From a virus: a DNA stretch of 64,000 nucleotides. The notes below the pieces were generated by a model. It worked only from the letters and a program-made list of their open reading frames with translations. It had not been told where the DNA came from and made no database searches. A program made the translations under genes and the position numbers. Every line of letters begins with the position of its first letter. The first letter of the stretch is position 1. The stretch covers positions 1 through 64,000 of IMG/VR virus record IMGVR_UViG_3300009146_000001; one strand, given 5' to 3'. Below are positions 36,497 through 61,200 of this stretch, in pieces.

Positions 36497-36590
36497 CAGC
36501 CTTTGGGATTCTTTTCTTGCGATGGAATGTGACCCCATGTACGCAGGTATCGCGCCTCCCGTGGCGCTCTTCATGGACCGGGGGCTGGTT

Positions 36591-36606
36591 CTCAGGGGTG
36601 CTTGCC
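36591..36606 (+). promoter_or_regulatory. GGGGTGCTTGCC element (variant leader box)
   Basis: CAGGGGTGCTTGCCAG differs from the boxes at 44-51 kb (TAGGGGTGACTTGCCATAG-type) by loss of one base in the centre and a changed first base. It lies 18 bases upstream of the ribbon-helix-helix gene. Confidence 0.4.
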
Positions 36607-36622
36607 AGCTCCCGGTTTATCT

Positions 36623-36808
36623 ATGAAACGGACCACCTGCAAGACACCCCAAGTCCGGCTCGATGAAGACATCGCGGCATGGATCCAGCAGCAGGCGGAC
36701 GCCGAACACCGCAGCTTGGGCCAGATGACGAACCTGCTCATCAGGAGGATGAGGAAGGTGCTCCACGAGAAGAAGGTCGAAGACCAGATGGACCAATTCC
36801 TGCCATGA
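36623..36808 (+). CDS. Ribbon-helix-helix (Arc/CopG-like) regulator (61 aa)
   Basis: MKRTTCKTPQVRLDEDIAA onward. The pattern P-Q-V-R-L-D-E-D-I-A-A-W-I-Q-Q-Q-A-D-A-E-H-R-S-L-G-Q-M-T-N-L-L-I-R-R-M-R is a standard ribbon-helix-helix: a DNA-contacting strand then two helices that dimerise. Length 61 aa is normal for the family. First gene of a plus-strand operon, next to divergent dyads, so an autoregulatory role is likely. Downstream genes overlap as ATGA. Confidence 0.75.
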   Translation: MKRTTCKTPQVRLDEDIAAWIQQQADAEHRSLGQMTNLLIRRMRKVLHEKKVEDQMDQFLP

Positions 36809-38144: not shown

Positions 38145-38191
38145 TGACCCCGATCCCACTAGCGGAAAATCCGCTAGCAGAACCGGGGTCA
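38145..38191. promoter_or_regulatory. Nested hairpin containing TAGCGG-N5-CCGCTA dyad
   Basis: TGACCCCG (38145-38152) pairs with CGGGGTCA (38184-38191), enclosing a perfect TAGCGG-AAAAT-CCGCTA dyad at 38160-38176. It lies in the gap between two minus-strand genes (38212 end, 38115 start). Terminator-like but with no long T-tract. It is the leftmost copy of the dyad family. Confidence 0.55.
38160..38176. promoter_or_regulatory. TAGCGG-AAAAT-CCGCTA dyad
   Basis: Leftmost copy; it sits inside the TGACCCCG/CGGGGTCA hairpin between two minus-strand genes and is the only copy not in the plus-strand block. Confidence 0.55.
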
Positions 38192-38211
38192 CCCAAGGGC
38201 GGAGTTGTGAT

Positions 38212-38849: not shown

Positions 38850-38882
38850 AAGCCCCGATCCCTTTCGAGACCGGGGCTCTTC
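38850..38882 (-). terminator. Terminator after first VPDSG-CTERM gene
   Basis: On the minus strand AGCCCCGG pairs with the downstream TCGGGGCT around a loop of about 12 bases, followed by TTTTGCTTTT. It lies downstream of the gene that ends at 38925. Confidence 0.65.
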
Positions 38883-38924
38883 CTGCGCCAGCACCCCCAA
38901 GCAGGTTAGGGGAGAAGAGGCAGC

Positions 38925-44187: not shown

Positions 44188-44204
44188 TAGCGGTTTTTCC
44201 GCTA
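44188..44204 (+). promoter_or_regulatory. TAGCGG-N5-CCGCTA dyad
   Basis: TAGCGG-TTTTT-CCGCTA, extended by GC on the right. Here the dyad is upstream of the leader box rather than after it, unlike the other leaders. Confidence 0.6.
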
Positions 44205-44234
44205 GCGGGGAGTGGAAAGCATGAGCCGGAATTG

Positions 44235-44253
44235 TAGGGGTGACTTGCCATAG
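44235..44253 (+). promoter_or_regulatory. Leader box TAGGGGTGACTTGCC
   Basis: TAGGGGTGACTTGCCATAG, 78 bases upstream of the start at 44313. It shares at least 13 of 15 central bases with the boxes at 45224 and 46149. Likely promoter core or activator site. Confidence 0.55.
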
Positions 44254-44312
44254 TGGGGGAACCTCACAACGAGGCAACCCTGACACAATCAAACCTAGAT
44301 AGACTGGAAATT

Positions 44313-45065
44313 ATGAAGGAAGCAAAGTCGAAGAACGCCACTAAGGCGAACGTCGAAATCATTCAACCGGCAACTGAGCCCACCGTCATTCCGGCAACTG
44401 AGCCCACCGTAGAGATTGGCCCGTTGCCCCTTGTTGGCGGCGAATATTCACCCGAAACGTCGAAAGACTTTTCGCTGGATATCACCTACACGGAAGGAAC
44501 CGTATCGGATTTTGCCGCGCAATCGGAAAACCAATTGGCTGCACTGGAAAACCTTAAGACGGCCGTTAAGGGCATGGCGAATGGTCGCATTGCTATCATC
44601 GCGGCAGTTAAGGCTGCACTGGCAACAGGCTGTCCTGTCGCAATCGTGCGGCATACGTTCGTAGAGTGCTGGATTGCGAATGGGGGAACAAAAACCTACG
44701 CGAACGAAATCATGTTAGGTTGCGGGATTCGTTTGCGCGCCGTGCGCAAGGACGCTGGCAAGTCCAAGGGGACAACGCCTGCAACGCCTAATCCCGCAAC
44801 GCCGGGACAGCCTGCAACGCCTCAGACGCCTGCAACGCCGGGACAGCCTGCTAGCGGAAATGCCGCTAGCGTGGAAACGCCGGTTGCCGGGACGGCAACG
44901 GTGGAAACGCCAGTCCCGACAGTCAACCTTGAAACGGTCAAGGATTTGACTCCTGAGGAAATTGGCAAGGCAATCGGTGCCTCTATCCTTGCGCAGTATG
45001 GCAAGGACAAGGCTAAGGAAGTTGCCCGTCACGTCATGGCAACGATTCATCAGGCATCAGCCTGA
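44313..45065 (+). CDS. Pro/Ala/Thr-repeat protein (250 aa)
   Basis: The start at 44313 (MKEAKSKNATKANVEIIQP) has a weak TGGA before it; an upstream in-frame start exists at 44253. Residues 20-35 repeat P-A-T-E-P-T-V. Residues 70-150 are a folded alpha-helical domain (I-A-I-I-A-A-V-K-A-A-L-A-T-G-C-P). A long P-A-T-P-G-Q-P repeat at about 155-185 follows. A TAGCGG dyad is in frame at about residue 180. The final helix is acidic. Codon use is less GC-rich than neighbours. Function unknown. Confidence 0.6.
   Translation: MKEAKSKNATKANVEIIQPATEPTVIPATEPTVEIGPLPLVGGEYSPETSKDFSLDITYTEGTVSDFAAQSENQLAALENLKTAVKGMANGRIAIIAAVKAALATGCPVAIVRHTFVECWIANGGTKTYANEIMLGCGIRLRAVRKDAGKSKGTTPATPNPATPGQPATPQTPATPGQPASGNAASVETPVAGTATVETPVPTVNLETVKDLTPEEIGKAIGASILAQYGKDKAKEVARHVMATIHQASA
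44775..44852 (+). repeat. In-gene tandem repeat coding P-A-T-P-G-Q
   Basis: CCTGCAACGCC and CCGGGACAGCCTGCAACGCC recur several times with a period of about 33 bases. They encode the Pro/Ala/Thr linker of the preceding gene, ending at the in-frame dyad. Confidence 0.55.
44852..44868 (+). promoter_or_regulatory. TAGCGG dyad inside a coding sequence
   Basis: TAGCGG-AAATG-CCGCTA, in frame within the 44313 gene, coding part of S-G-N-A-A-S at the end of the low-complexity linker. Confidence 0.55.
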
Positions 45066-45071
45066 CAACGA

Positions 45072-45103
45072 AGAGATCACTCGCGAGAGTGGTCTCTTTT
45101 TTT
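45072..45103 (+). terminator. Rho-independent terminator
   Basis: AGAGATCACTC pairs with GAGTGGTCTCT around GCGA (one G-U) and is followed by a T-tract and then GTGCCC. It lies 7 bases after the stop at 45065. Strong canonical terminator. Confidence 0.9.
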
Positions 45104-45223
45104 GTGCCCTTATCCGGCATGGTCCCGCGACCCCGGTGCCGCCAGCATCCTGCCCCATCGGGGCATGGGGGCGGTGCGCGATAGCCGGGCCGCACACGCG
45201 GGATTGGGGGCGGTGCGGAATTC

Positions 45224-45242
45224 TAGGGGTGACTTGCATATA
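45224..45242 (+). promoter_or_regulatory. Leader box TAGGGGTGACTTGCATA
   Basis: TAGGGGTGACTTGCATATA, 117 bases before the start at 45341; the interval 45066-45340 otherwise holds only a terminator and the dyad at 45291. Preceded by CGGAATTC, as for the box at 44235. Confidence 0.6.
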
Positions 45243-45290
45243 TGTGGAGACGCTCACCGATATGTTTCGGCGGGGCGAACCACTAAACCT

Positions 45291-45307
45291 TAGCGGAAAT
45301 TCCGCTA
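45291..45307 (+). promoter_or_regulatory. TAGCGG-AAATT-CCGCTA dyad
   Basis: Consensus copy, 67 bases after the leader box and 34 bases before the start at 45341. Followed by AACTGACAGGAAG, a Shine-Dalgarno-bearing stretch common to the downstream leaders. Confidence 0.65.
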
Positions 45308-45340
45308 GCAAACACAACTGACAGGAAGAAAGCAGAACAT

Positions 45341-45556
45341 ATGGCAGCAATCGTAGCAGCACTGATCGGTAAGTTCGTTACCGTCAAGACCGCAGGCAAC
45401 ACGTCGATCTTCGGCAGCCTCAAGGAACTCCCCGATAACGGAGGCTTCGAGATCTGGTCGAACCCGGCAATGAGCACAAGCTTCGGCTTGCGCTTCGGGG
45501 TCAAGGCCATCGCCACGGTCACGGCCGGGGAAACCATCGTCATCAACCTCAAGTAA
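45341..45556 (+). CDS. Small beta-rich protein (71 aa)
   Basis: MAAIVAALIGKFVTVKTAG onward. Strands alternate with Gly/Asn turns (V-T-V-K-T-A-G-N-T-S-I, F-G-L-R-F-G-V-K-A-I-A-T-V-T-A-G). Possibly a small beta barrel. It is preceded by a full leader: box, dyad and AGGAAG ribosome-binding site. High expression seems likely; function unknown. Confidence 0.7.
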   Translation: MAAIVAALIGKFVTVKTAGNTSIFGSLKELPDNGGFEIWSNPAMSTSFGLRFGVKAIATVTAGETIVINLK

Positions 45557-45562
45557 CTGACC

Positions 45563-45700
45563 ATGGACGGGCAAGACGCGGAACACGCCGCCTTCATCGA
45601 AGGCATCATCGTCATCGAACTCCTCATCGCACTCGGCGAGATGCCTCCCACACGGGAGCGCGTCTCGGAGGAGGATCTCTCGATCTCAATAGCAGAATAA
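45563..45700 (+). CDS. Short protein (45 aa)
   Basis: MDGQDAEHAAFIEGIIVIE onward; an acidic N-terminus, one hydrophobic stretch (F-I-E-G-I-I-V-I-E-L-L-I-A-L) and an acidic tail. It starts 7 bases after the previous stop, and its stop lies in the next dyad. Probably a small membrane-associated or helical peptide. No family recognised. Confidence 0.5.
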   Translation: MDGQDAEHAAFIEGIIVIELLIALGEMPPTRERVSEEDLSISIAE

Positions 45701-45706
45701 CCGCTA
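45690..45706 (+). promoter_or_regulatory. TAGCAG-N5-CCGCTA dyad variant
   Basis: TAGCAG-AATAA-CCGCTA, one base from consensus, overlapping the stop of the 45-aa gene and ending 5 bases before the next ATG. Confidence 0.45.
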
Positions 45707-45710
45707 ACAT

Positions 45711-45926
45711 ATGAAGCAAATCCTGATCGTCATCCTCTCCGTGCTGTGCCTCCTCGGGTGCCGCACGCGACAGCCGCAGCCGACACCGGCCGCGCTCTAC
45801 GCCGAACTCGTCCGCGTCTACGGTGCGGCCGACGCTGCCTCCATCTGGGAGGAACGCGGCTTCGCTCCGGTTCATCCCCGTGACTGGGGCGACGTGACCG
45901 GGAAGACCGGCACAATCTCGGACTGA
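45711..45926 (+). CDS. Small lipoprotein (71 aa)
   Basis: MKQILIVILSVLCLLGCRT has a typical lipobox (L-L-G-C). The mature part is about 55 residues with Pro-rich start and a helix (A-L-Y-A-E-L-V-R-V-Y-G-A-A-D). Likely envelope-anchored. Could be a superinfection-exclusion or spanin-type lipoprotein; not recognised. Confidence 0.65.
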   Translation: MKQILIVILSVLCLLGCRTRQPQPTPAALYAELVRVYGAADAASIWEERGFAPVHPRDWGDVTGKTGTISD

Positions 45927-45931
45927 ACCTT

Positions 45932-46099
45932 ATGTATAAAACCACTGTCATCATAAGCACGGAGTTCAACGCGGCGGAGTTCACGCTGGATGAACTGGTG
46001 CATCATGTGAACATCAATGGCGCGCAGCTCCTCTCGATGACCACCGAGAGCGACCGACCACCGGAATCCTATCCGCCTATGTCGGAGCCGAACGACTGA
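45932..46099 (+). CDS. Small hypothetical protein (55 aa)
   Basis: MYKTTVIISTEFNAAEFTL onward; a beta strand then a helix and acidic, Pro-rich tail. It begins 5 bases after the lipoprotein stop and ends two bases before a terminator. Function unknown. Confidence 0.55.
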   Translation: MYKTTVIISTEFNAAEFTLDELVHHVNINGAQLLSMTTESDRPPESYPPMSEPND

Positions 46100-46100
46100 A

Positions 46101-46136
46101 CCAGCCCAGCCTCCTTCACCGGGGGCTGGGTTTTTT
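46101..46136 (+). terminator. Rho-independent terminator
   Basis: CCAGCCC pairs with GGGCTGG over a loop of about 15 bases and is followed by TTTTTT and then CGTGCCC. It directly follows the 55-aa gene's stop. Confidence 0.85.
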
Positions 46137-46148
46137 CGTGCCCAAATC

Positions 46149-46166
46149 TAGGGGTGACTTGCAATG
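46149..46166 (+). promoter_or_regulatory. Leader box TAGGGGTGACTTGCAA
   Basis: TAGGGGTGACTTGCAATG, 113 bases before the start at 46262. It follows a terminator directly, as expected for a promoter. Confidence 0.6.
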
Positions 46167-46227
46167 GTAGATGGGACTCGCTCGGGATTGATTCCGCAGG
46201 CGACCAGCCCGAAATGACAGCAACCAA

Positions 46228-46244
46228 TAGCGGAAATTCTGCTA
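46228..46244 (+). promoter_or_regulatory. TAGCGG-AAATT-CTGCTA dyad
   Basis: One mismatch in the right arm (CTGCTA). It lies 18 bases before the start at 46262, just before GACAGGAACAT. Confidence 0.55.
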
Positions 46245-46261
46245 GCAGATGACAGGAACAT

Positions 46262-47146
46262 ATGGACATCAACGGTAACATCATCGCCGGTCTACTCACC
46301 GGCCGGGTCGAATGCACCTTGGGGTGCGGCCAATCCAAGAAGCTGAAGGAAGCATCGCGGGATGCATCGGTCAGCCTCGGCGCGGTCGATCCCTTCGGCA
46401 AGCCGAACGGAAGCGTCGACGTCAGCGCCAAGCTCTGGAACACAGCGCCGAGGGTGAAGCGCCTGATCCTCGACATGGCGAACATCAGGCCAGCGGCTCA
46501 GGACATGGCTCTCCCGTGGGTGGAGAAGGCCATCATCTTCCGGGTCGCAAGGGCGCAGGAGATCAAGCGCAGGGTCGACGCGCTGATGGACGGGCTCACG
46601 CCTCGGATCGACGACATCGAACTCAACTTCGACGAGGAAGTGCGTGCCGCAATGGCCGGGTATCCGGGCGGGGCGGAGCGGGATTTCTACCCGTTAGACG
46701 GGCAGGATTTCCGCAGCGGCATCGTCCGCAAGTTCGTGGTGTCGGCGGTGCCGTCGTCGTCGGCGATCATCCAGCTCCTCGGGGAGGACGTGGGCACCAG
46801 CCTTGCAGCGGAGCGCGAGGATGACATGCGCCAGAACCTCGCCAAGTCGCAGGCCGTGGTCGTGGCCCGGCTGCACGCGGCGATGGAGCGCATCGTCGCA
46901 GCCTGCGATCCCGGCAAAGACCGGGTCAGGATCACGCAAGGTCTGCTCGGTGACATGAATGAGTTGATGGATACGGTTCCCAACTTGTTGCTCATCCCCG
47001 ATCCCAAGATCGAGGACTTGGCCAGCGATATCCGGCTGGCGTTCTCGGGGATATCCCGAGAGGACTTGGCGGAAGACAAGGGGGCACGGGCCTCCGCCCA
47101 CACACTGGCGAAATCCTTCGCCTCAACCCTCGCCGCCATAATCTAG
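46262..47146 (+). CDS. DUF3150-like helical protein (294 aa)
   Basis: MDINGNIIAGLLTGRVECT onward; largely helical with a conserved-looking middle (A-K-L-W-N-T-A-P-R-V-K-R-L-I-L, L-P-W-V-E-K-A-I-I-F-R-V-A, M-A-G-Y-P-G-G). DUF3150-type proteins are often coded next to a CobS/MoxR-like ATPase and a CobT-like VWA protein; the same three-gene order is seen here. Family assignment is from memory of this context and is tentative. Function unknown. Confidence 0.5.
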   Translation: MDINGNIIAGLLTGRVECTLGCGQSKKLKEASRDASVSLGAVDPFGKPNGSVDVSAKLWNTAPRVKRLILDMANIRPAAQDMALPWVEKAIIFRVARAQEIKRRVDALMDGLTPRIDDIELNFDEEVRAAMAGYPGGAERDFYPLDGQDFRSGIVRKFVVSAVPSSSAIIQLLGEDVGTSLAAEREDDMRQNLAKSQAVVVARLHAAMERIVAACDPGKDRVRITQGLLGDMNELMDTVPNLLLIPDPKIEDLASDIRLAFSGISREDLAEDKGARASAHTLAKSFASTLAAII

Positions 47147-47161
47147 GGGTGGGTTGCATAG
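47144..47161 (+). promoter_or_regulatory. Leader box TAGGGGTGGGTTGCATA
   Basis: TAGGGGTGGGTTGCATAG; its TAG is the stop codon of the preceding gene. A hairpin CCAAGGGA-CGGT-TCCCTTGG (47184-47203) and a dyad (47238) follow, before the start at 47291. Confidence 0.6.
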
Positions 47162-47183
47162 GTAGTAACCGATAGAGCGTGGC

Positions 47184-47203
47184 CCAAGGGACGGTTCCCT
47201 TGG
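47184..47203 (+). repeat. Leader hairpin CCAAGGGA/TCCCTTGG
   Basis: A perfect 8-bp stem with CGGT loop between the box and dyad of the AAA+ ATPase leader. No T-tract. Confidence 0.55.
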
Positions 47204-47237
47204 TTCCCACTCTGACGGTAACCAATCCTTCAGACGC

Positions 47238-47254
47238 TAACGGAAATTCCGCTA
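47238..47254 (+). promoter_or_regulatory. TAACGG-AAATT-CCGCTA dyad
   Basis: One base from perfect symmetry. Located 37 bases before the ATG at 47291, followed by ACTGACGGGAAAG. Confidence 0.6.
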
Positions 47255-47290
47255 GTGCAACTGACACACACTGACGGGAAAGCATTTGGT

Positions 47291-48391
47291 ATGATATTCG
47301 AAGTTAACTACGCGGAGTTGGGTGACCACATCGACAACAGCATCGACAGCGGCATGGCCGCAGCGGTCATCAGCCACCCCGGTGTCGGCAAGACCACGTT
47401 CATCAAGGCCGTGGCCAACAAGCGCAACATCGCCATGGGTGGCAAGCGCATCGGCGACACCTTCGGGCGGCGGGAGATGCTCGGCTTCCTCTATGAGCCG
47501 GTCGACTTCCGGGGACTCATGGTTCCGCAGCAGGATGGCAGCACCAAGGTGTTCCCCTTGGACAAGTGGCCGTTCGAATCCTTGGTGCAGAAGGGACTCA
47601 TCCCTGAGCACGGCGTGTTCGTTCTCGACGACATGCTCAACGCACCTCGCTCGGTGCTGGATGCATTCGCCGAGCCCTTGTGCGAGCACACGGTCAACGG
47701 GGAAAGGTTGGCTCCCGGCTGGACGATCATCGCAACCGGGAACCATATCGGTGGAGGCAGCTCGGCCAAGCCGATGCCCAACCACGTCACGAACCGGCTC
47801 GCAATCCTTGCGCTCAAGCCGGACTGGGAATCATGGGCTAGCTGGGCCGTCGGCAATATCGCGCCGGAGTTGCTGGGGTATTTCGAACTCCAGAAGGGGG
47901 CGGACCTCTTCGCATACGACCCCAAGCTGCGCGCTGAGCGGCCGAACGAGCCGTACCTCACGCCGAGATCATGCGAGCACCTGTCTCGACGCATCGAGGC
48001 GTGGCGTGCGAACCGGGGCGACAAGCCGCCGATGCATTTGTATGCATCCGTGGTCGGTGACTACGGAGCCAAGCTCTGGGCCACGCTGGATTACATTCAC
48101 GAGCTTGCACCTTGGGAAGAGGTGCTCGCGGATCACAAGGCAGCGCGTCTGCCGGTGTCCGCCGGGGCGAAGTTCGCCCAGATCAGCATCCTCTTGGGAG
48201 GCTTGCAGCAGAACTGCCCGGAAGGGATGAGCATCCCGCGTCCCATCGCCGCAGCGGTGGGCGGGTACATGAACCGCCTGCCCAACGAGGTGCAGGCCGT
48301 CGCCCATAACCGGGCGATGAGGCTGCGCAAGGAGTGGAGCCGGACGGACGAGTGCACGAAGTGGTTCGTGAAGAACCAATCGGAAATCTAG
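47291..48391 (+). CDS. MoxR/CobS-type AAA+ ATPase (366 aa)
   Basis: The start ATG at 47291 (MIFEVNYAELGDHIDNSID) follows GACGGGA; an in-frame GTG at 47255 lies at the dyad. P-loop H-P-G-V-G-K-T-T at 29-36; Walker B V-F-V-L-D-D at 109-114; sensor 1 A-T-G-N at 148-151; arginine finger T-N-R at 167-169. Typical MoxR family chaperone-like ATPase, which usually works with a VWA protein such as the one coded next. Substrate in this phage unknown. Confidence 0.8.
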   Translation: MIFEVNYAELGDHIDNSIDSGMAAAVISHPGVGKTTFIKAVANKRNIAMGGKRIGDTFGRREMLGFLYEPVDFRGLMVPQQDGSTKVFPLDKWPFESLVQKGLIPEHGVFVLDDMLNAPRSVLDAFAEPLCEHTVNGERLAPGWTIIATGNHIGGGSSAKPMPNHVTNRLAILALKPDWESWASWAVGNIAPELLGYFELQKGADLFAYDPKLRAERPNEPYLTPRSCEHLSRRIEAWRANRGDKPPMHLYASVVGDYGAKLWATLDYIHELAPWEEVLADHKAARLPVSAGAKFAQISILLGGLQQNCPEGMSIPRPIAAAVGGYMNRLPNEVQAVAHNRAMRLRKEWSRTDECTKWFVKNQSEI

Positions 48392-48406
48392 GGGTGAGTT
48401 ACACCT
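48389..48406 (+). promoter_or_regulatory. Leader box TAGGGGTGAGTTACAC
   Basis: TAGGGGTGAGTTACACCT; the TAG is the preceding gene's stop codon. The leader hairpin TATGGAGC/GCTCCATA (48406-48413 with 48429-48436) follows, then the dyad at 48463. Confidence 0.55.
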
Positions 48407-48436
48407 ATGGAGCGGGCGATCAGCGTCTGCTCCATA
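48406..48436 (+). repeat. Leader hairpin TATGGAGC/GCTCCATA
   Basis: A perfect 8-bp stem with a 15-base loop between box and dyad of the VWA-gene leader. Confidence 0.5.
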
Positions 48437-48462
48437 CGTGTGTCTCAACACTGAGATACTGC

Positions 48463-48479
48463 TAACGGAAATTCCGCTA
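48463..48479 (+). promoter_or_regulatory. TAACGG-AAATT-CCGCTA dyad
   Basis: Lies 30 bases before the ATG at 48509. Followed by AACTGACGG just before the start. Confidence 0.6.
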
Positions 48480-48508
48480 GCGAACCAACCAAGAAAGGGA
48501 ACTGACGG

Positions 48509-49903
48509 ATGGATAACACAACACCGGCTGTCTTGCGAAAGGCAGTCAACCAGATCTTCCTCAAGGCAATCTGGGTCACGGAGATCGGCTTCGAACGCTG
48601 CGTCTTCATCGAGATGCCGGAACTCATGGCCTCGAACGGGCAAGGCACGATGGCGACGGACGGAAGGGTAGTCTACTACCACCCGTCCTGCCTCAGGTGG
48701 CAGCCTGCGTTCATCGAAGGCGTGATCGTGCATGAGTGGCTTCACGGTGCACTGATGCATCCGGAGAGGTTCGCGGTGCTCCCGGAGAAGAACCACAAGG
48801 TGGCCAACATCGCGATGGACGCCATCGTCAACGCGATGTGCATCGAGTGGGGATTCAAGCTGCCGGAAGGTGCCATCGACATGCCCGAGGGGCGGACGCA
48901 TACGTTCGAGCAACTCTACGCCAAGCTCATGGGCAAGCAGAAGCAGCAGCCGGAGCCGCAGCGTGGCAAGGGCAAGGGCGGCGACCAGCAGGGTGAATCC
49001 GAGGGCGATCAGGGTGGAGACTCTGACGGGGATGGTGAGGGCGAGGGCTCCGGGTCAGGAGATCAGGAGGATTCCGATCAGGATCGGGAGGGCGATGGCG
49101 GAGGTGGCGACGAGGAGAAGGACGGGGACGGGGATAAGGAAGGCAAGGGCAAATCCGGTAACGGAAAATCCGCTAAGGATGCAAAGCCCGAGCCCGCCAA
49201 GGGTCCGCCCAAGCCGACGCTCGGCGAGAGGGACATCCACAAGGCTCCGTCTCGTGGATCCCAAGCCGAGGACAAGACAGCGGAGGAGCGGGCCAATGCC
49301 GCCATCGTCCGTGCCGTGGCCACAGCCAAGGCGCATGGCAAGGATCCGCTCGGGCTCGGCCTCGCCGTCGCAGGCTGGGGAGAGTCGAAGGTATCATGGC
49401 GCGAGCAGCTTGCTGCCTACGCCACGCAGCGGACCAACGAGGACTGGTCTTACATGAAGGCCAACGGTTCCTACGCTGCCATGAACGTGATCGTTCCGGG
49501 CAGGTACAGCAAAACAATCGGGGACGTGATCGTCGTCCGCGATACATCGGGCTCGCTCTATTCGAGGCAGAAGGAAGTCATGACCGAGGTGGCCGGGATC
49601 ATCACCCAGTGCACGCCAACCCGGATCATCCTCATCGACTGCGATGCAGAGGTGCACCGCGTCCTCGAACTCGAACCGTGGCAGCCCTTGCCCACGGATG
49701 CACTCGGCGGAGGCGGGACGGATTTCCGTCCGGTCTTCGAGGAGGTGGCCAAGCGTTATCCAGACGTGGGCCTGATGGTATTCATCACGGACCTCATGGG
49801 TTCGTTCCCGGATCAGGCTCCGCCCTACCCGGTGATCTGGTGCGGCATCGAGAACGGCAATCTCAAGCCGCCGTTCGGTGACTTCGTGGAAGTCGCAGAC
49901 TAA
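48509..49903 (+). CDS. DUF2201-like metallopeptidase/VWA protein (464 aa)
   Basis: N-terminal domain with an HExxH motif, H-E-W-L-H at 75-79, in the arrangement of DUF2201_N. A long disordered Gly/Asp/Glu/Lys linker spans about 145-235. A C-terminal VWA domain follows with the metal-ion motif D-T-S-G-S-L near 344 and T-D-L at about 430. In known pairs a MoxR ATPase powers a VWA partner that may insert metals or remodel a target. A TAGCGG dyad is in frame inside the linker at about residue 218. The stop is TAA, overlapping another dyad. Confidence 0.72.
   Translation: MDNTTPAVLRKAVNQIFLKAIWVTEIGFERCVFIEMPELMASNGQGTMATDGRVVYYHPSCLRWQPAFIEGVIVHEWLHGALMHPERFAVLPEKNHKVANIAMDAIVNAMCIEWGFKLPEGAIDMPEGRTHTFEQLYAKLMGKQKQQPEPQRGKGKGGDQQGESEGDQGGDSDGDGEGEGSGSGDQEDSDQDREGDGGGGDEEKDGDGDKEGKGKSGNGKSAKDAKPEPAKGPPKPTLGERDIHKAPSRGSQAEDKTAEERANAAIVRAVATAKAHGKDPLGLGLAVAGWGESKVSWREQLAAYATQRTNEDWSYMKANGSYAAMNVIVPGRYSKTIGDVIVVRDTSGSLYSRQKEVMTEVAGIITQCTPTRIILIDCDAEVHRVLELEPWQPLPTDALGGGGTDFRPVFEEVAKRYPDVGLMVFITDLMGSFPDQAPPYPVIWCGIENGNLKPPFGDFVEVAD
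49159..49175 (+). promoter_or_regulatory. TAACGG dyad inside the VWA-protein gene
   Basis: TAACGG-AAAAT-CCGCTA, in frame within the low-complexity linker, coding G-N-G-K-S-A-K. Confidence 0.5.
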
Positions 49904-49918
49904 GCGGAAATTCCGCTA
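49902..49918 (+). promoter_or_regulatory. AAGCGG-AAATT-CCGCTA dyad at gene end
   Basis: The first base is A instead of T. It overlaps the stop of the VWA gene, then a hairpin follows (49926-49966). Confidence 0.5.
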
Positions 49919-49925
49919 GTGGATA

Positions 49926-49966
49926 AGCCCGAGGGGCGGGCAGCGGTGTCTGCCCTTCAGGCTTAG
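49926..49966 (+). terminator. Hairpin AAGCC..GGGCAG/CTGCCC..GGCTT
   Basis: Two stacked stems (AAGCC with GGCTT, inner GGGCAG with CTGCCC) after the VWA gene. No T-tract, so weak terminator or RNA-stabilising hairpin. Confidence 0.45.
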
Positions 49967-50027
49967 CTACTTCCCATCATACCCGGTTGTCTCCGGGGAG
50001 GTGGGCTTCTGTCAGGTGGTTGTGTCC

Positions 50028-50053
50028 GAGGGGAGGGCAGGTGTCCTCCCCTC
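50028..50053 (+). repeat. Inverted repeat GAGGGGAGG/CCTCCCCTC
   Basis: A perfect 9-bp stem with an 8-base loop, 41 bases before the start at 50094. Could be a terminator, a leader hairpin or an operator. Confidence 0.5.
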
Positions 50054-50093
50054 TGACGTGTCCAAATGAATGGACCGAAACAAATGAGAAGCG

Positions 50094-50498
50094 ATGAACA
50101 AATATGACAAGGCGATAGAGACCTATCGTAAATTGCAGGAGCTTCACGCCAAGCGCGATGAACTCTTCCGGGAGTTGGGCTTCTGCCTTGAATGGGCACG
50201 GGCTCTCGATCTGCTGGCGCTCAAGCCAGAGCACGCATCGGGTATTCACCGGGCGCAGGACATGGCGAGCGTGGACGCGAACTCGCTGCCGCATGGCAGC
50301 GCACGATTCGTTTGGCAGAGGTACAAACTCAGGTATCCCAACGCTGTGGTTGGGGCGCACCTCAAGAGTGGTGGGATCGTCATCTTCCTCAACCCGATAC
50401 CGGCGCGCTCCGGACTCGGGGCCGGGCAAGGGGTGCCTACCTACGCAGAGTTCAGTGAGAAATTAAAACAACAACAAGAAAGGAATAGTCATGGCTAA
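50094..50498 (+). CDS. Hypothetical protein (134 aa)
   Basis: MNKYDKAIETYRKLQELHA onward. An N-terminal TPR-like helix pair (Y-D-K-A-I-E-T-Y-R-K-L), then a mixed middle (S-V-D-A-N-S-L-P-H-G-S-A-R-F-V-W-Q) and a Gly-rich tail. Overlaps the next gene by 8 bases. Unknown. Confidence 0.6.
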   Translation: MNKYDKAIETYRKLQELHAKRDELFRELGFCLEWARALDLLALKPEHASGIHRAQDMASVDANSLPHGSARFVWQRYKLRYPNAVVGAHLKSGGIVIFLNPIPARSGLGAGQGVPTYAEFSEKLKQQQERNSHG

Positions 50499-50748
50499 CT
50501 GTATTGCAAAGTGCTGCGGCATCGACAGCTCGCGGCGAAAGGAAGAACACCGGCTCGGCAGCGAGGCTGCACTGGTCGAGGCGAACACATGGCACACGTC
50601 CGCCGTCGCCTACGTGAAGAAGGACGGGAGCGGCCACGTCAATGTGACGCAGAACGGGAAGGAGATCCTTGGCTTCACGTTCGGGCCGGAGACCGTGCCG
50701 CATAAACCGGACGAGGACGACGACATCGAGCAGGAGGAAACCAAGTGA
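50491..50748 (+). CDS. Small Cys-containing hypothetical protein (85 aa)
   Basis: MANCIAKCCGIDSSRRKEE onward, with three early Cys (C-I-A-K-C-C), then a beta-rich middle (T-S-A-V-A-Y-V-K-K-D-G-S-G-H-V-N-V-T) and an acidic C-terminal tail (D-E-D-D-D-I-E-Q-E-E). Overlaps the next gene by 4 bases. Not recognised. Confidence 0.55.
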   Translation: MANCIAKCCGIDSSRRKEEHRLGSEAALVEANTWHTSAVAYVKKDGSGHVNVTQNGKEILGFTFGPETVPHKPDEDDDIEQEETK

Positions 50749-50951
50749 ACGAGATCACACTACATCTCCAGCCCGGAGAGATCCAGACCCTCATCGGATT
50801 GGTGCGGGTCGAAGCCGCCAAGTGGCGGGGCAGGATCTGGCGACACCCGGACAGGAACACGAGCGGCCCGCCTGCCGGGTGGCAGGAGCACGTCGATCAA
50901 CTCGACGCACTGAACGACCGGCTCGTGACACAGCTAACACTTAGCACTTGA
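50745..50951 (+). CDS. Hypothetical protein (68 aa)
   Basis: MNEITLHLQPGEIQTLIGL onward; predicted beta-alpha with L-V-R-V-E-A-A-K-W-R-G-R and a C-terminal amphipathic helix. ATGA overlap with the gene before. The next leader box begins 6 bases after its stop. Confidence 0.55.
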   Translation: MNEITLHLQPGEIQTLIGLVRVEAAKWRGRIWRHPDRNTSGPPAGWQEHVDQLDALNDRLVTQLTLST

Positions 50952-50956
50952 CAATC

Positions 50957-50974
50957 TAGGGGTGGGTTGGACTA
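50957..50974 (+). promoter_or_regulatory. Leader box TAGGGGTGGGTTGGAC
   Basis: TAGGGGTGGGTTGGACTA, 117 bases before the start at 51074. Followed by a hairpin and the dyad at 51013. Confidence 0.5.
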
Positions 50975-50975
50975 T

Positions 50976-51005
50976 CGTGACCACGGTTCACGCCGTGGGT
51001 TCACG
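50976..51005 (+). repeat. Leader hairpin CGTGACCACGG/CCGTGGGTTCACG
   Basis: The CCACGG/CCGTGG stem extends with CGTGA/TCACG across a 2-base bulge. Lies between box and dyad, as in the leaders at 47 and 48 kb. Confidence 0.5.
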
Positions 51006-51012
51006 TCTACGC

Positions 51013-51029
51013 TAACGGAATTTCCGCTA
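51013..51029 (+). promoter_or_regulatory. TAACGG-AATTT-CCGCTA dyad
   Basis: Lies 45 bases before the ATG at 51074, followed by ACAACTGACAGGAG, a strong ribosome-binding site. Confidence 0.6.
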
Positions 51030-51073
51030 GTGCAGACCTGAACCTTAACACACAACTGACAGGAGTAGTTATT

Positions 51074-51712
51074 ATGGGACGACGAAGAAGAAGGAAGCTG
51101 CTGTTCATCGACACGAATGCCTACCCAACGGCGACGCCGACGAACACGCTGGCCGGGATACAACGACGGGTATGGTGGAGCTACGCTGCCTACTTCAGGA
51201 AGTGGCCACGCGATCTGATCTGCTCGAACCCCGCCACACTGATGGGGAAGAACCCATTCGGCACGAACCCCGGATGGGCGGAGAGAAGCGATGACGTCCA
51301 GCGAGACCTCACCTGTCTCTACATGGACTACCTCGAAGCGCGGGACAACCCACGCTGGACCGAAGGGGTGGATGAATCCGTCCGGTCCGATCTGCCGTGC
51401 CGGGTCATGAACTGGCGGCGTACCGACCTCGAACTGCCGCCATGCATGGGCATCCTCTGGGGCTGGGGAACCCGGATGGCCACGGTCATGGCCGCACTGC
51501 GCAAGACAGGCATCCAGTATTACAAGGCACCAGCCTCCGTGAACTGGCTGCACTTCGTGGTGGATGGGCTGAACAAGCACACCATGAACTTCAGGAAGTC
51601 GACGACGGTCATCGTCTTCCCGTTATACAAGACGCGGGAAGTGGAGATTGCACTGACCACCTACTTCCCGTGGAAGGACATCGGGGAAGGGCAGCCGGAC
51701 TACTTCGAATAA
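51074..51712 (+). CDS. Hypothetical protein (212 aa)
   Basis: MGRRRRRKLLFIDTNAYPT begins with a polybasic stretch. The body is rich in Trp, Arg and Tyr (W-W-S-Y-A-A-Y-F, M-G-I-L-W-G-W-G-T-R-M-A-T-V-M-A-A-L), with Q-Y-Y-K-A-P-A-S near residue 155. Preceded by a full leader module with AGGAG. Perhaps an early host-takeover protein; no family recognised. Confidence 0.6.
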   Translation: MGRRRRRKLLFIDTNAYPTATPTNTLAGIQRRVWWSYAAYFRKWPRDLICSNPATLMGKNPFGTNPGWAERSDDVQRDLTCLYMDYLEARDNPRWTEGVDESVRSDLPCRVMNWRRTDLELPPCMGILWGWGTRMATVMAALRKTGIQYYKAPASVNWLHFVVDGLNKHTMNFRKSTTVIVFPLYKTREVEIALTTYFPWKDIGEGQPDYFE

Positions 51713-53806: not shown

Positions 53807-54349
53807 ATGAAACTCGAAGGAATGCTAGGATACATTGAAGCAAGAAGACGGATGGACATCGAGTGCGAGCGGCCGGGGTACGGCACGCTCTTGGCGGAAC
53901 ACGGGGTGCTCTTCCCCAAGATCGGCAGGCGGCCGAAGGGGATGCGGAAGATGAAGCTGGGCATGTGCTATCGGAACGCCAGCACCATAACCAACTTCCC
54001 TTGGGGTGGCGTCGACCTCCTGTACTGCGAAGGATATTCAGCACGGGCCAGTCTGGGTATCCCGCTCCTCCATGCGTGGACCTTGAACCCGGTGACCATG
54101 GAGGTGATCGACCCGACGTGGGATGACGGTGCCGAATACTACGGCTGGGTCTACACGCGGGAGATCATCGCCGAGGCAATGGTCGGGACGATGGAGTACG
54201 GGATCATCGACTCCGATCATCCGAATGGGTGGGAACGGATCCGCCGGATGATCACCGGGGAAATCCCGGCCGCGCACTGGCGGCACGAGATCACCGACAT
54301 GGTGAAGGCACTAACGGAAAAACCGCTAGAGATATGCGAGTCAACCTGA
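53807..54349 (+). CDS. Transglutaminase/papain-like candidate (180 aa)
   Basis: MKLEGMLGYIEARRRMDIE onward. C-Y-R-N-A-S-T near residue 53 (candidate nucleophile Cys), L-Y-C-E-G-Y-S, then L-L-H-A-W-T-L-N and V-I-D-P-T-W-D-D give a Cys-His-Asp order like the transglutaminase fold (H-A-W and D-P-T-W are typical). The end contains a dyad in frame and overlaps the next gene. Preceded by ACTGACAGTGAC. A peptidase, transferase or inactive homologue are all possible. Confidence 0.5.
   Translation: MKLEGMLGYIEARRRMDIECERPGYGTLLAEHGVLFPKIGRRPKGMRKMKLGMCYRNASTITNFPWGGVDLLYCEGYSARASLGIPLLHAWTLNPVTMEVIDPTWDDGAEYYGWVYTREIIAEAMVGTMEYGIIDSDHPNGWERIRRMITGEIPAAHWRHEITDMVKALTEKPLEICEST
54312..54328 (+). promoter_or_regulatory. 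TAACGG-AAAAA-CCGCTA dyad at 3' end of gene
   Basis: In frame near the end of the preceding gene (coding L-T-E-K-P-L-E) and 5 bases before the next ATG at 54334. Confidence 0.5.
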
Positions 54350-54880: not shown

Positions 54881-54893
54881 CAGTCACAGACGA

Positions 54894-54936
54894 CCGTGTT
54901 ACGCTGCTCACATGATCAGCGTGGCACGGTTTTTTT
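54894..54936 (+). terminator. Rho-independent terminator
   Basis: CCGTGTTACGCTG pairs with CAGCGTGGCACGG (13 pairs, two G-U) over a 10-base loop and is followed by seven T, then GTGCCC. It lies 14 bases after the stop at 54880. The same GTGCCC suffix follows the terminators at 45072 and 46101. Confidence 0.85.
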
Positions 54937-58039: not shown

Positions 58040-58285
58040 ATGATCAAGTGGCTAGATGAACAACGTAGGATCCTCGCGGAACCTATGCGAAAGCCGCCGG
58101 GCGCATCTTCCGTCCCCGTGATCGGCCCACCGCATAACGTAAGAGTCCACGGTCGGAAGCGGAACGGCGTCGTCCGGCCCCTCGTCTTCCGAGCAAGGAG
58201 CGACGTGACGCTTGGCGGCCACCTTGAAGCTTTGGAACTGCGACAGCGGGTGCACGACGCAGTGCTCGAACGGCTGGCAGCTTAG
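58040..58285 (+). CDS. Hypothetical basic protein (81 aa)
   Basis: The start at 58040 (MIKWLDEQRRILAEPMRKP) has AAGGGG close upstream. Basic (H-G-R-K-R-N-G-V-V-R-P-L-V-F-R-A-R-S) with a final helix. The stop TAG is the TAG of the dyad at 58283. It overlaps the C-terminus of the giant minus-strand ORF by about 200 bases, so one of the two ends may not be coding. Its promoter and normal composition favour it. Confidence 0.5.
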   Translation: MIKWLDEQRRILAEPMRKPPGASSVPVIGPPHNVRVHGRKRNGVVRPLVFRARSDVTLGGHLEALELRQRVHDAVLERLAA

Positions 58286-61200
58286 CGGATTTTCCGCTAG
58301 CGGATGACGACTTGGCGAGGCGGATCCCACCTCCGCCTCCGCCACCCCCGCCTCCACCCCAGCTTGCGGCACGGCCACTGCCTCCGCCCTTGGAGAGGGC
58401 TTTAATCGCCGCCTCCCGGTGCTGTACCGCCGTAAATTGCTTCGGCGTCAGCCGCTTCAGCGTGTCCTCCTTCTCATCCTCCTCGGGCACGTTGTCATAC
58501 ATTCGCCAGACGGATCGGGAGGCCACCGCTTGGTTGACCCGCTTCGCCGCCGCCGACTGGTCGATCCCCTTCTTGTGCATGAGCTGGCGGATCCCCTCGG
58601 CCTTCTCCTCCTCCGACTTGCGCTTGGCCTCGGGGTCGCCGGTCCGCTCGTACTCAATCCCCCACTTGATCGCCCGCTCCACGTTGTCGGAAGCCGGGTT
58701 CTGGGACACCTGACCGAAGGGGCGATGCGCAATCTTGGTACCGTAGTCGATGCCGGGGATGGCTTCGACGAGCGTGCCGACTATGCCCGGAGGCGCGGAC
58801 ATGGCGCGGATCGAGGCGGCTGCCTCCCGGTACTCACGGTGCGCCGGGTCGTTCAGGTTCCAGAGGACACCAACGATGGGCAGACGACGGGCAAGGAACT
58901 TCCCCGTCTGCGTCATGATGACATCCTTGGTCGCCTTGATATCGGTGAAGTCCGCTCCACCAATGATCGCCTTGAAGGCATAGACGGCATCGGCCAAGAA
59001 GCCCAGCACGGGCGAGAAGGCACCAATCTCCAGCGTGCCTTCGCCGAACCCGGCGAAGAGGTCATCGTAGAATTGCCCGAGCGGGATCGAGGCGAGTAGC
59101 GCACCCGTGAAGACGATCAGCCCGGTGCGAAGGTCCGGGTTCCGAATGAAGTTCTCGACGGTCCACCCCGGAGTGCGCAACCCCAAGGCCCCCAAGCCCC
59201 ACGAAACCCCGAGCGTACCGATGGCTCCGCTGCCGAGCAGCAGGAAGAGGAGGCCAAGGATGTTCGCAATCTCCCTCGGGTAGCGGTAGTACCACGGCAT
59301 CTTGTGCCGGGGCATCTTGAAGATTTCCCCGGTGACGATGCTGTAGAAGTTCGCACTGTTCCACACCTTGAGGGCGGCGAACGACCGGGCCACCTTGCCC
59401 TTCCATCCCTTGATGAACGCCACGGGTGGACGTTCCCGCAGGGTCTGGACCTGACTCTCGGTCAGGTAGTTGTTCATCCATGCGGTAATCGCAGGTTTCG
59501 GCAGCTCGGTCTGGACCGCCTCCTCCATCGACTTGCCCGTGGCGATGGTCTGGTTGTAGAGGTTGATCATCACCGACTCCAAGGATCCACCGCCGGTCAG
59601 CCAGCGCCGGGCCATCCGGACATTCGCCCGGTTCATCCCGAGTTCCTTCTCGGTGAATGGGTAGAGCGGGTCCAAGGGATCGTCGGTCCACACCCCCTTC
59701 TTCTTCCGCTGGTCGAGTGCGCGCAACGCCTTCTGCTTGAGCCTGCGCAGATCGGCGACGGCCGTGTCCGCGAAGGTCATGTTGTTGATGTCCTCGGCGA
59801 TGGTCCGGCTTTCCCTCGTGGCCCAGATTACAGCCTTGCCGAACGGCACGCGGGTGATCGCCGTGCTGATCCAGCGTTCGACGCCCTTGAAGAATCCGGA
59901 CTGGCCGCGCTCGTACTCCAAGGCCCCGGTCACAGCCCATATGTTTCCCGAGGTCTTCTGGAGAAGGCGCTCATCGTAGAGCGTCATCCCACGGATGATG
60001 CCCCGGTCGCTCATCTCGACGATTGCACTGACCGACTTGTGGTAGGCCGGGGCAAGGATCGGGATGTGCCGGAGCATGGCGCGCAGCCACTTCGTCCTCC
60101 CAGCGCGGGTGTTGCTCAGATGGTAGACCGTGATCTTGGCGGCGTTCTTCATCCACCGCGCCACCGCCTTGGCCGTGCACAGCGGGAAGATGACGTGGCT
60201 CCAGAGAAGCTTCTGCTGGCGGTAGATGCCCGTGGTCAGGGTGAGTACCGTGTCCTTAATTACGGACAGGCTATTCCACAGGCCGGAAACCAAGGGTGCC
60301 ACGCCAAGCATGGAACCCCAGCGAAACGTATCGTGGATGTGCTGCTCTGGATCGAGTGAAGCCTTGGCAAATTCCTCCATCAACGCGACCGACTGGTGCA
60401 TGATCTTGTGAATCCGCTCCAGCTCTTCGAGATTGAGTGCCGTCTCCTCCTGAAACTTCTTCTGCACGAGTGTGTCGGCCTTCCCACCCGGAGTACCGAC
60501 CGCCTTGTTCGCCTCGGAAATCTGGGCGACGACCACCGCGTCGATCACCGACATCGCCTTGGCGAGGTTCGTCGAGTGATGATTCAGGACAACACCGTGC
60601 AGGGTGTTCATCGCCTGATGCGATGTGAGTCCGTACTCGTAGAAGCCCGACGGGGCTTCCATATCTCCACGCGGGGTAATGAAGCTGCTCTTGGTATCCG
60701 TCGATGTGCTGGACTTGGACTGCCGCTGCATGTCGAAGTCGTCCATCTTCTCCTGCGCCAAGAGGAGCTTGTCCGCGTACTCGTTCTCGATCTCCTGCCG
60801 GATCTCGGCCGGTGTCCCCGTGGCCTTGCCCGATGCGACGACGCGGGCGGTCAGGTCGTCGATGATCTCGTTGAACGAGGTCACCGTCTTCTTGCCCTTC
60901 TTCAGATCCCTCCTGAGTTCATTGTAGTAATCCTCCATCCCGAACCCGGCGTTGGCCCCCATGAGTTGTGAGTTCACCCGAGCGCGGTATCTCGGGTTCG
61001 AGGTCATGATGAATGAGTGGACCAGATGCTGGAAGGTCAGTGGCTTCGTCGCCTCATCGGTATGGCGGAGGACATTGTTGATATAGTCCGCACGGAACCC
61101 GGTCGGATCCGCAACCATCGTGCGCTTGTTCTTGTCGTCGCGCCTCTGCTGCTGCCCCTGCCTCGCCTTGCGGAAGTCTTCGAGGAGCATGCCCAGACGC

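What the first reader, a model, noticed from the sequence alone, without database searches (positions are those of the whole stretch)
44235..51074. Repeated leader module: box, hairpin, dyad, ribosome-binding site, ATG
In the leaders at 45224, 46149, 47144, 48389 and 50957 a TAGGGGTG(A/G)(C/G)TTGCATA-like box is followed by a hairpin in three cases, then the dyad 56-94 bases later, then ACTGAC(A/G)GGA and the start codon. The distance from box to start is 113-120 in four of five. This spacing suggests one functional unit regulating separate transcription units. It is the strongest candidate for an undescribed control system here.
Basis: partly seen in the sequence, partly recalled or inferred. 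Interest (0 to 1): 0.9.

Follow-up and report, generated by a model that had tools for sequence, protein, structure and literature searches.

The report
Repeated phage promoter-and-hairpin leader
An uncultured 76-kb phage places the same 19-bp DNA signal, followed by stem-loops, before six separate gene groups; it is probably a shared on/off switch (promoter/operator) for its early genes, a recognisable kind of phage design whose sequence and reader are new.

Summary
The box AATCTAGGGGTG(A/G)(C/G)TTGCA occurs six times in the probably complete 76-kb phage genome, all on the + strand at 44.2-51.0 kb, and nowhere else at this stringency; chance expectation is about zero. Each copy heads a gene or operon. 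Intrinsic terminators end the preceding transcript before two boxes, once about 7 bp before. A structured segment of unrelated sequence follows all six. The box does not pair with its leader.

Best reading: the box is a DNA-level promoter/operator core with transcription starting just downstream; stem-loops and dyad belong to the 5' untranslated RNA. No sigma-70 -10 element, sigma-54 spacing, phage RNA polymerase or sigma gene was found.

New lead: a ribbon-helix-helix-like gene (36623-36808) heading the only other + operon has two degenerate inverted box copies flanking its start codon: a candidate regulator.

Correction: the dyad is no fixed part of the module but a dispersed palindrome (12 sites in 44-58 kb, some inside genes), enriched just upstream of start codons.

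No relative carrying the leaders was found, so conservation is untested. The design resembles known phage leader cassettes (PeSL, SAS/ESAS, single-element phage promoters) without belonging to any.

The parts
44231..44249 (+). Box 1 (AATTGTAGGGGTGACTTGCC), 78 bp before ATG 44313; dyad upstream at 44188, none downstream
45220..45238 (+). Box 2, 117 bp before ATG 45341
46145..46163 (+). Box 3, about 7 bp after the T-run of terminator 46103-46132 and 113 bp before ATG 46262
47140..47158 (+). Box 4; its TAG is the stop codon of ORF 46262-47146; 147 bp before ATG 47291
48385..48403 (+). Box 5 (one mismatch, TTACA); its TAG is the stop codon of ORF 47255-48391; 120 bp before ATG 48509
50953..50971 (+). 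Box 6, directly after the stop codon of ORF 50745-50951; 117 bp before ATG 51074
44250..44300 (+). Post-box stem-loop 1 (z -2.6)
45239..45290 (+). Post-box stem-loop 2 (z -3.1)
46164..46227 (+). Post-box stem-loop 3, visible but not beyond its base composition (z -0.3)
47159..47237 (+). Post-box stem-loop 4 (z -2.7 over the whole spacer, -1.9 in the fixed window)
48404..48462 (+). Post-box stem-loops 5, two hairpins (z -5.4 over the whole spacer, -4.8 in the fixed window)
50972..51012 (+). Post-box stem-loop 6 (z -2.9 over the whole spacer, -3.0 in the fixed window)
45291..45307 (+). Dyad TAGCGG-N5-CCGCTA, 33 nt before ATG 45341
46228..46244 (+). Dyad, 17 nt before ATG 46262
47238..47254 (+). 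Dyad, 36 nt before ATG 47291
48463..48479 (+). Dyad, 29 nt before ATG 48509
51013..51029 (+). Dyad, 44 nt before ATG 51074
45690..45706 (+). Dyad without a box, 4 nt before ATG 45711
54312..54328 (+). Dyad without a box, 5 nt before ATG 54334
45070..45099 (+). Intrinsic terminator of the first unit
46103..46132 (+). Intrinsic terminator (12 pairs, then a T-run) just before box 3
36594..36605 (+). Degenerate box AGGGGTG-CTTGC, in the loop of inverted repeat 36577-36616, upstream of ATG 36623
36638..36650 (-). Degenerate box GGGGTGTCTTGC on the minus strand, inside the first codons of the RHH-like gene
36623..36808 (+). RHH-like 61-aa protein (P0001), candidate reader of the box
   Evidence: RHH_5 E=0.02, FitA-like_RHH 0.12, RHH_1 0.13; Arc-like repressor PHROG 0.082; CopG family PDB chain E=1.9; all below curated cut-offs
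47291..48391 (+). MoxR-type AAA ATPase behind box 4
   Evidence: phrog_1297 E=1.6e-39
48509..49903 (+). Metallopeptidase-like/VWA protein behind box 5
   Evidence: PF13203 2.2e-27, PF09967 1.3e-21

Best explanation
The box is a DNA-level transcription-control site: a single-element promoter core, possibly fused with an operator. It starts six co-regulated transcription units of the early/middle region, with transcription beginning within roughly the first 10 bp after the box. The RNA then begins with a stem-loop, carries in five of six a second stem-loop (the dyad), and reaches the start codon. Shown here: copies, strand, positions, terminators between units, structure of the segment after the box, no pairing between box and leader. 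Inferred: that the box is a promoter, and where transcription starts.
For: Six copies on one strand, each heading a gene or operon, chance about zero. Terminator 46103-46132 ends about 7 bp before box 3 and the next gene starts at 46262, so a promoter is needed in between; the box is the strongest element there that is conserved across the leaders. Box sequence is conserved while the following segment is not similar in sequence but is structured. The structure starts 16-23 nt from the box start, so a transcription start far inside it would destroy it. The box does not pair with its leader better than with shuffled leaders (z +0.5 to -1.0), against an RNA-structure role. Two degenerate inverted boxes flank the start codon of the RHH-like gene; 0 of 200 Markov genomes contained such a pair. 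Precedent: phiEco32 single-element promoters with starts 6-8 bp downstream (PMC8948821).
Against: No transcription data. No sigma factor, T7-like or N4-like RNA polymerase was detected; a very divergent one may escape. No -10 element at any spacing of 12-23. The RHH assignment is below every curated cut-off, and the single-sequence AlphaFold monomer is one helix. The RHH-side boxes each carry an indel or mismatch and were found after the fact. No relative shows conservation.
Confidence: 0.55

Rival explanations
1. The box is a transcribed RNA element (protein- or RNA-binding site in the leader) that controls translation or stability, and transcription starts upstream of it.
For: The leaders are strongly structured and lie just before start codons; the dyad is enriched within 50 nt upstream of starts (7 of 12 in 44-58 kb, P = 6e-6).
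Against: The terminator directly before box 3 leaves little room for a separate upstream promoter. The box does not pair with its leader. No Rfam family reaches its gathering score.
Confidence: 0.17
2. The leaders are mobile regulatory cassettes, like the PeSLs of T4-type phages, kept mainly because they let gene modules be shuffled by recombination.
For: Repeated intergenic box plus stem-loop between unrelated genes; boxes abut or overlap the preceding stop codon in three cases.
Against: Apart from box, dyad and start motif the leaders share no sequence, so they are not recent copies and offer little homology for recombination. No early sigma-70 promoter and no terminator-type stem-loop after the box. 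Not exclusive of a promoter role.
Confidence: 0.1
3. The box is a leftward (antisense) sigma-70 promoter: its reverse complement reads TAGATT/TAGAAT/TACAAT, a good -10.
For: Near-consensus -10 in all six on the minus strand; T+19 (5 of 6) matches the last A of a -35 at 17-bp spacing.
Against: The -35 hexamers are poor (CCCCCA, TCCACA, CATCTA, TTACTA, GCTCCA, GTCACG). The most conserved part, CACCCC, would be spacer. The near-constant distance to the downstream start would be unexplained. The six -10s are copies of one sequence, so they count as one coincidence.
Confidence: 0.06
4. The box is a strand-specific nicking or replication site, like the localized single-strand interruptions of T5, phiKMV-like and tf phages.
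For: All copies on one strand, as for tf nick sites (PMC3517423).
Against: Confined to 6.7 kb and always in front of a gene; 19 bp is longer than the tf consensus site.
Confidence: 0.05

Closest known systems
phiEco32 middle/late promoters (phage sigma phi32_gp36; PMC8948821)
   Same: One single conserved element upstream of phage genes; start sites a few bp downstream would fit the stem-loop positions here.
   Different: Consensus tAATGTAtA, unrelated; a phage sigma factor is known there and none was detected here.
Cluster K mycobacteriophage SAS/ESAS (PMC3203893)
   Same: Short repeated sequence plus inverted repeat upstream of start codons of non-structural genes, one orientation, unknown reader.
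   Different: SAS lies 3-7 bp from the start codon and contains AGGAG; the box lies 78-147 bp away and has no Shine-Dalgarno. The inverted repeat there sits directly beside the SAS.
PeSL cassettes of T4-like phages; HGTV-1 archaeal virus motif (as cited in PMC4503421, PMC3950731)
   Same: Promoter-like box followed by a stem-loop, repeated between genes.
   Different: No sigma-70 early promoter and no terminator-type stem-loop here. The original PeSL papers were not held, so the definition is second-hand.
N4-like phages (Schitoviridae)
   Same: MoxR ATPase + metallopeptidase/VWA gene pair; early and late genes on opposite strands.
   Different: No virion RNA polymerase found. The N4 hairpin promoter (P1 template GTTGC-GAA-GCAAC; PMC12633501) is not the dyad here.
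Contig IMGVR_UViG_3300021478_000019 (117 kb; G001/L013)
   Same: Four exact copies of CTAGGGGTGACTTGCA, each shortly before a start codon.
   Different: There TTGCA is part of an evident sigma-70 promoter (TTGCAN-N17-TAGNNT in three of four, N16 in the other); here no -10 follows. No genes shown to be shared.

Membership tests
Sigma-70 promoter (forward) | -10 hexamer 16-18 bp after a -35 | tested here: not met
   summed -10 scores not above the null's 95th percentile at any spacing 12-23
Sigma-54 promoter | GG-N10-GC spacing of -24/-12 | tested here: not met
   sequence: GG-N8-GC at most; the TTGCA half alone matches
T7-like phage promoter | single-subunit RNA polymerase gene in the genome | tested here: inconclusive
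   no PF00940 hit (that search had no positive control) and no motif set
N4-like vRNAP hairpin promoter | virion RNA polymerase encoded | tested here: not met
   profile of nine vRNAPs: best E 5.6; hhalign to the 4231-aa protein 0.1% probability
phiEco32-type single-element promoter | one conserved element, no second element | tested here: met
phiEco32-type single-element promoter | phage sigma factor | tested here: inconclusive
   no PF04542 or PF08281 hit, but such sigmas diverge to 15% identity (PMC8948821)
phiEco32-type single-element promoter | transcription start 6-8 bp downstream | not testable with these tools
   no RNA data; stem-loop positions are compatible
PeSL cassette | early sigma-70 promoter plus terminator stem-loop | tested here: not met
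SAS/ESAS | repeat within 3-7 bp of the start codon with AGGAG | tested here: not met
   box 78-147 bp away
Operator of an RHH regulator | binding of the box by the RHH protein | not testable with these tools
   only circumstantial: inverted degenerate boxes at the RHH-like gene

The most novel reading that the evidence does not exclude
The box is the recognition site of an unrecognised phage-encoded transcription initiator (a very divergent RNA polymerase or sigma/activator, perhaps working with the RHH-like protein). It would define a new promoter class whose transcripts always begin with a structured 5' end, in a phage lineage without known relatives.
Probability: 0.2. Interest if true: 0.7.

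Novelty: new variant of a known kind. Interest (0 to 1): 0.42.

Why it matters
If right, one short DNA signal and perhaps one small regulator would explain how this unstudied phage switches on its early genes, and would give a concrete sequence with which to find the unknown reader. The side observation that several phages carrying the MoxR-VWA pair have their own start-proximal palindromes suggests a wider, little-charted class of phage leader elements.

Tried and rejected
Relatives of the leaders: blastn in phages, protein scans of IMG/VR and pattern scans of IMG/VR and bacterial genomes gave no other genome with a multi-copy box, except the unrelated-looking G001. One 98% identical fragment (L181, 4 kb) was found through a late gene and does not reach the leaders. 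Forward sigma-70 and sigma-54 promoters rejected (spacing). N4-type early promoters rejected because no vRNAP was found. Box-leader RNA pairing rejected. Known RNA families: none at gathering score. The 4231-aa protein as an RNA polymerase: no support. The idea of one fixed module box-hairpin-dyad-start was dropped because the dyad and the start motif occur without the box. AlphaFold of the RHH-like protein alone was uninformative.

Full report
The window is part of a 76,045-bp virus record whose ends share an exact 123-bp direct repeat, so the genome is probably complete. Late, structural-type genes lie on the minus strand on both sides; a + strand block at 44.3-57.8 kb carries the leaders. 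The phage has almost no recognisable relatives: only a MoxR-type ATPase and a metallopeptidase/VWA protein, a helicase and a few virion proteins are assignable. The MoxR-VWA pair is shared, at about 20-36% identity, with N4-like and other phages.

The box. Six copies of AATCTAGGGGTG(A/G)(C/G)TTGCA stand on the + strand at 44235, 45224, 46149, 47144, 48389 and 50957. They are the only copies in the genome at this stringency and are far beyond chance. Two boxes contain the stop codon of the preceding gene, and a third lies directly after one. The box-to-start distance is 78, 117, 113, 147, 120 and 117 bp.

Transcription units. Intrinsic terminators close the units before the boxes at 45224 and 46149. 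The second ends about 7 bp before the conserved AATC of the box, so a new transcript must begin between there and the next start codon at 46262. The box is the one element at the head of that gap that is conserved across all six leaders. This is the strongest argument that it is a promoter element rather than a transcribed one.

The leader after the box. Apart from T at +19, the sequence between box and dyad is not conserved. Yet it is structured in every leader, on average 2.6 sd below its shuffles against -0.45 for 523 neighbouring windows. The stem-loops begin 16-23 nt from the box start. A start site much further downstream, as a sigma-70 reading of TTGCAT would need, would cut them. Structure kept without sequence points to a role in RNA. 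The box itself does not pair with the leader.

Known promoter types. No -10 follows at any spacing; sigma-54 spacing is off by two; no sigma factor or phage RNA polymerase was detected, although the PF00940 search had no positive control and very divergent proteins could escape. The nearest mechanism on record is the single-element promoter of phiEco32, read by a divergent phage sigma with starts 6-8 bp downstream (PMC8948821).

A candidate reader. The only other + strand operon examined starts with a 61-aa protein that several libraries rank as ribbon-helix-helix, always below cut-off; its single-sequence AlphaFold monomer is one helix and does not help. Its start codon lies between two degenerate box copies in inverted orientation, the first in the loop of a 12-bp inverted repeat. 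Only two other GGGGTG-N0-4-TTGC sites exist outside the boxes, and no such inverted pair arose in 200 Markov genomes. This suggests an autoregulated regulator whose operator is the box. It was found after the fact and is offered as a testable lead.

The dyad. TAGCGG-N5-CCGCTA is a dispersed palindrome (17 sites with at most 2 mismatches). Seven of the 12 sites in 44-58 kb lie 4-44 nt upstream of a start codon (P = 6e-6), five of them in boxed leaders. Others lie in protein linkers (44852, 49159), in the loop of a terminator-like hairpin (38160) and in a distant gene (69219). It is better seen as a separate, start-associated and possibly mobile hairpin element than as part of the box unit. Other viruses with the MoxR-VWA pair have their own repeated, often start-proximal palindromes: 19 of 84 loci against 4 of 72 control loci, with some duplicate viruses among the 19 and shorter control loci.

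An independent echo. An otherwise unrelated-looking 117-kb virus contig has four copies of CTAGGGGTGACTTGCA before genes, there as part of an evident sigma-70 promoter. Whether this is coincidence or a shared factor is open.

Verdict. The repeated leader is real, and most likely a set of phage promoters/operators with structured 5' leaders. The kind is known; the signal and its reader are not. Conservation, start sites and binding are untested.

Noticed in passing
L017, L038, L040, L041, L042, L055, L070, L081, L086, L106: Viruses with a MoxR-VWA pair often carry their own repeated palindrome close to start codons (e.g. GTTACTCAGGTGAGTAAC x6 in L040, TTTGTGACATGATGTCACAAA x7 in L081, a TTACCT...AGGTAACACCATG family x5 in L055); 19 of 84 loci vs 4 of 72 controls.
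   Followed up: partly
window 44852-44868, 49159-49175, 58283-58299: Copies of the dyad palindrome inside coding linkers, in the same reading frame (AGC/AAC GGA AAN NCC GCT), as if inserted in-frame.
   Followed up: partly
window 38151-38193 vs 38856-38884: Two similar terminator-like hairpins (CCCCGATCCC...ACCGGGG), one with the dyad in its loop: looks like an insertion of the palindrome.
   Followed up: no
L013/L134 (contig IMGVR_UViG_3300021478_000019): Four copies of CTAGGGGTGACTTGCA before start codons in an otherwise unrelated-looking 117-kb virus, there within a clear sigma-70 promoter.
   Followed up: partly
G000 58083-70778 (minus): A 4231-aa ORF without any database match; not an N4-type RNA polymerase. 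Its C-terminus overlaps a plausible + strand ORF at 58041-58285.
   Followed up: partly
window 54882-54930: TTGACA-N17-TACGCT overlapping a long hairpin followed by TTTTTTT, before gene 54963: a possible overlapped promoter/terminator of another type.
   Followed up: no
whole window: Most genes, above all the late ones, lack a Shine-Dalgarno sequence; AACTGA-type motifs precede several starts. The host may initiate translation largely without SD.
   Followed up: no
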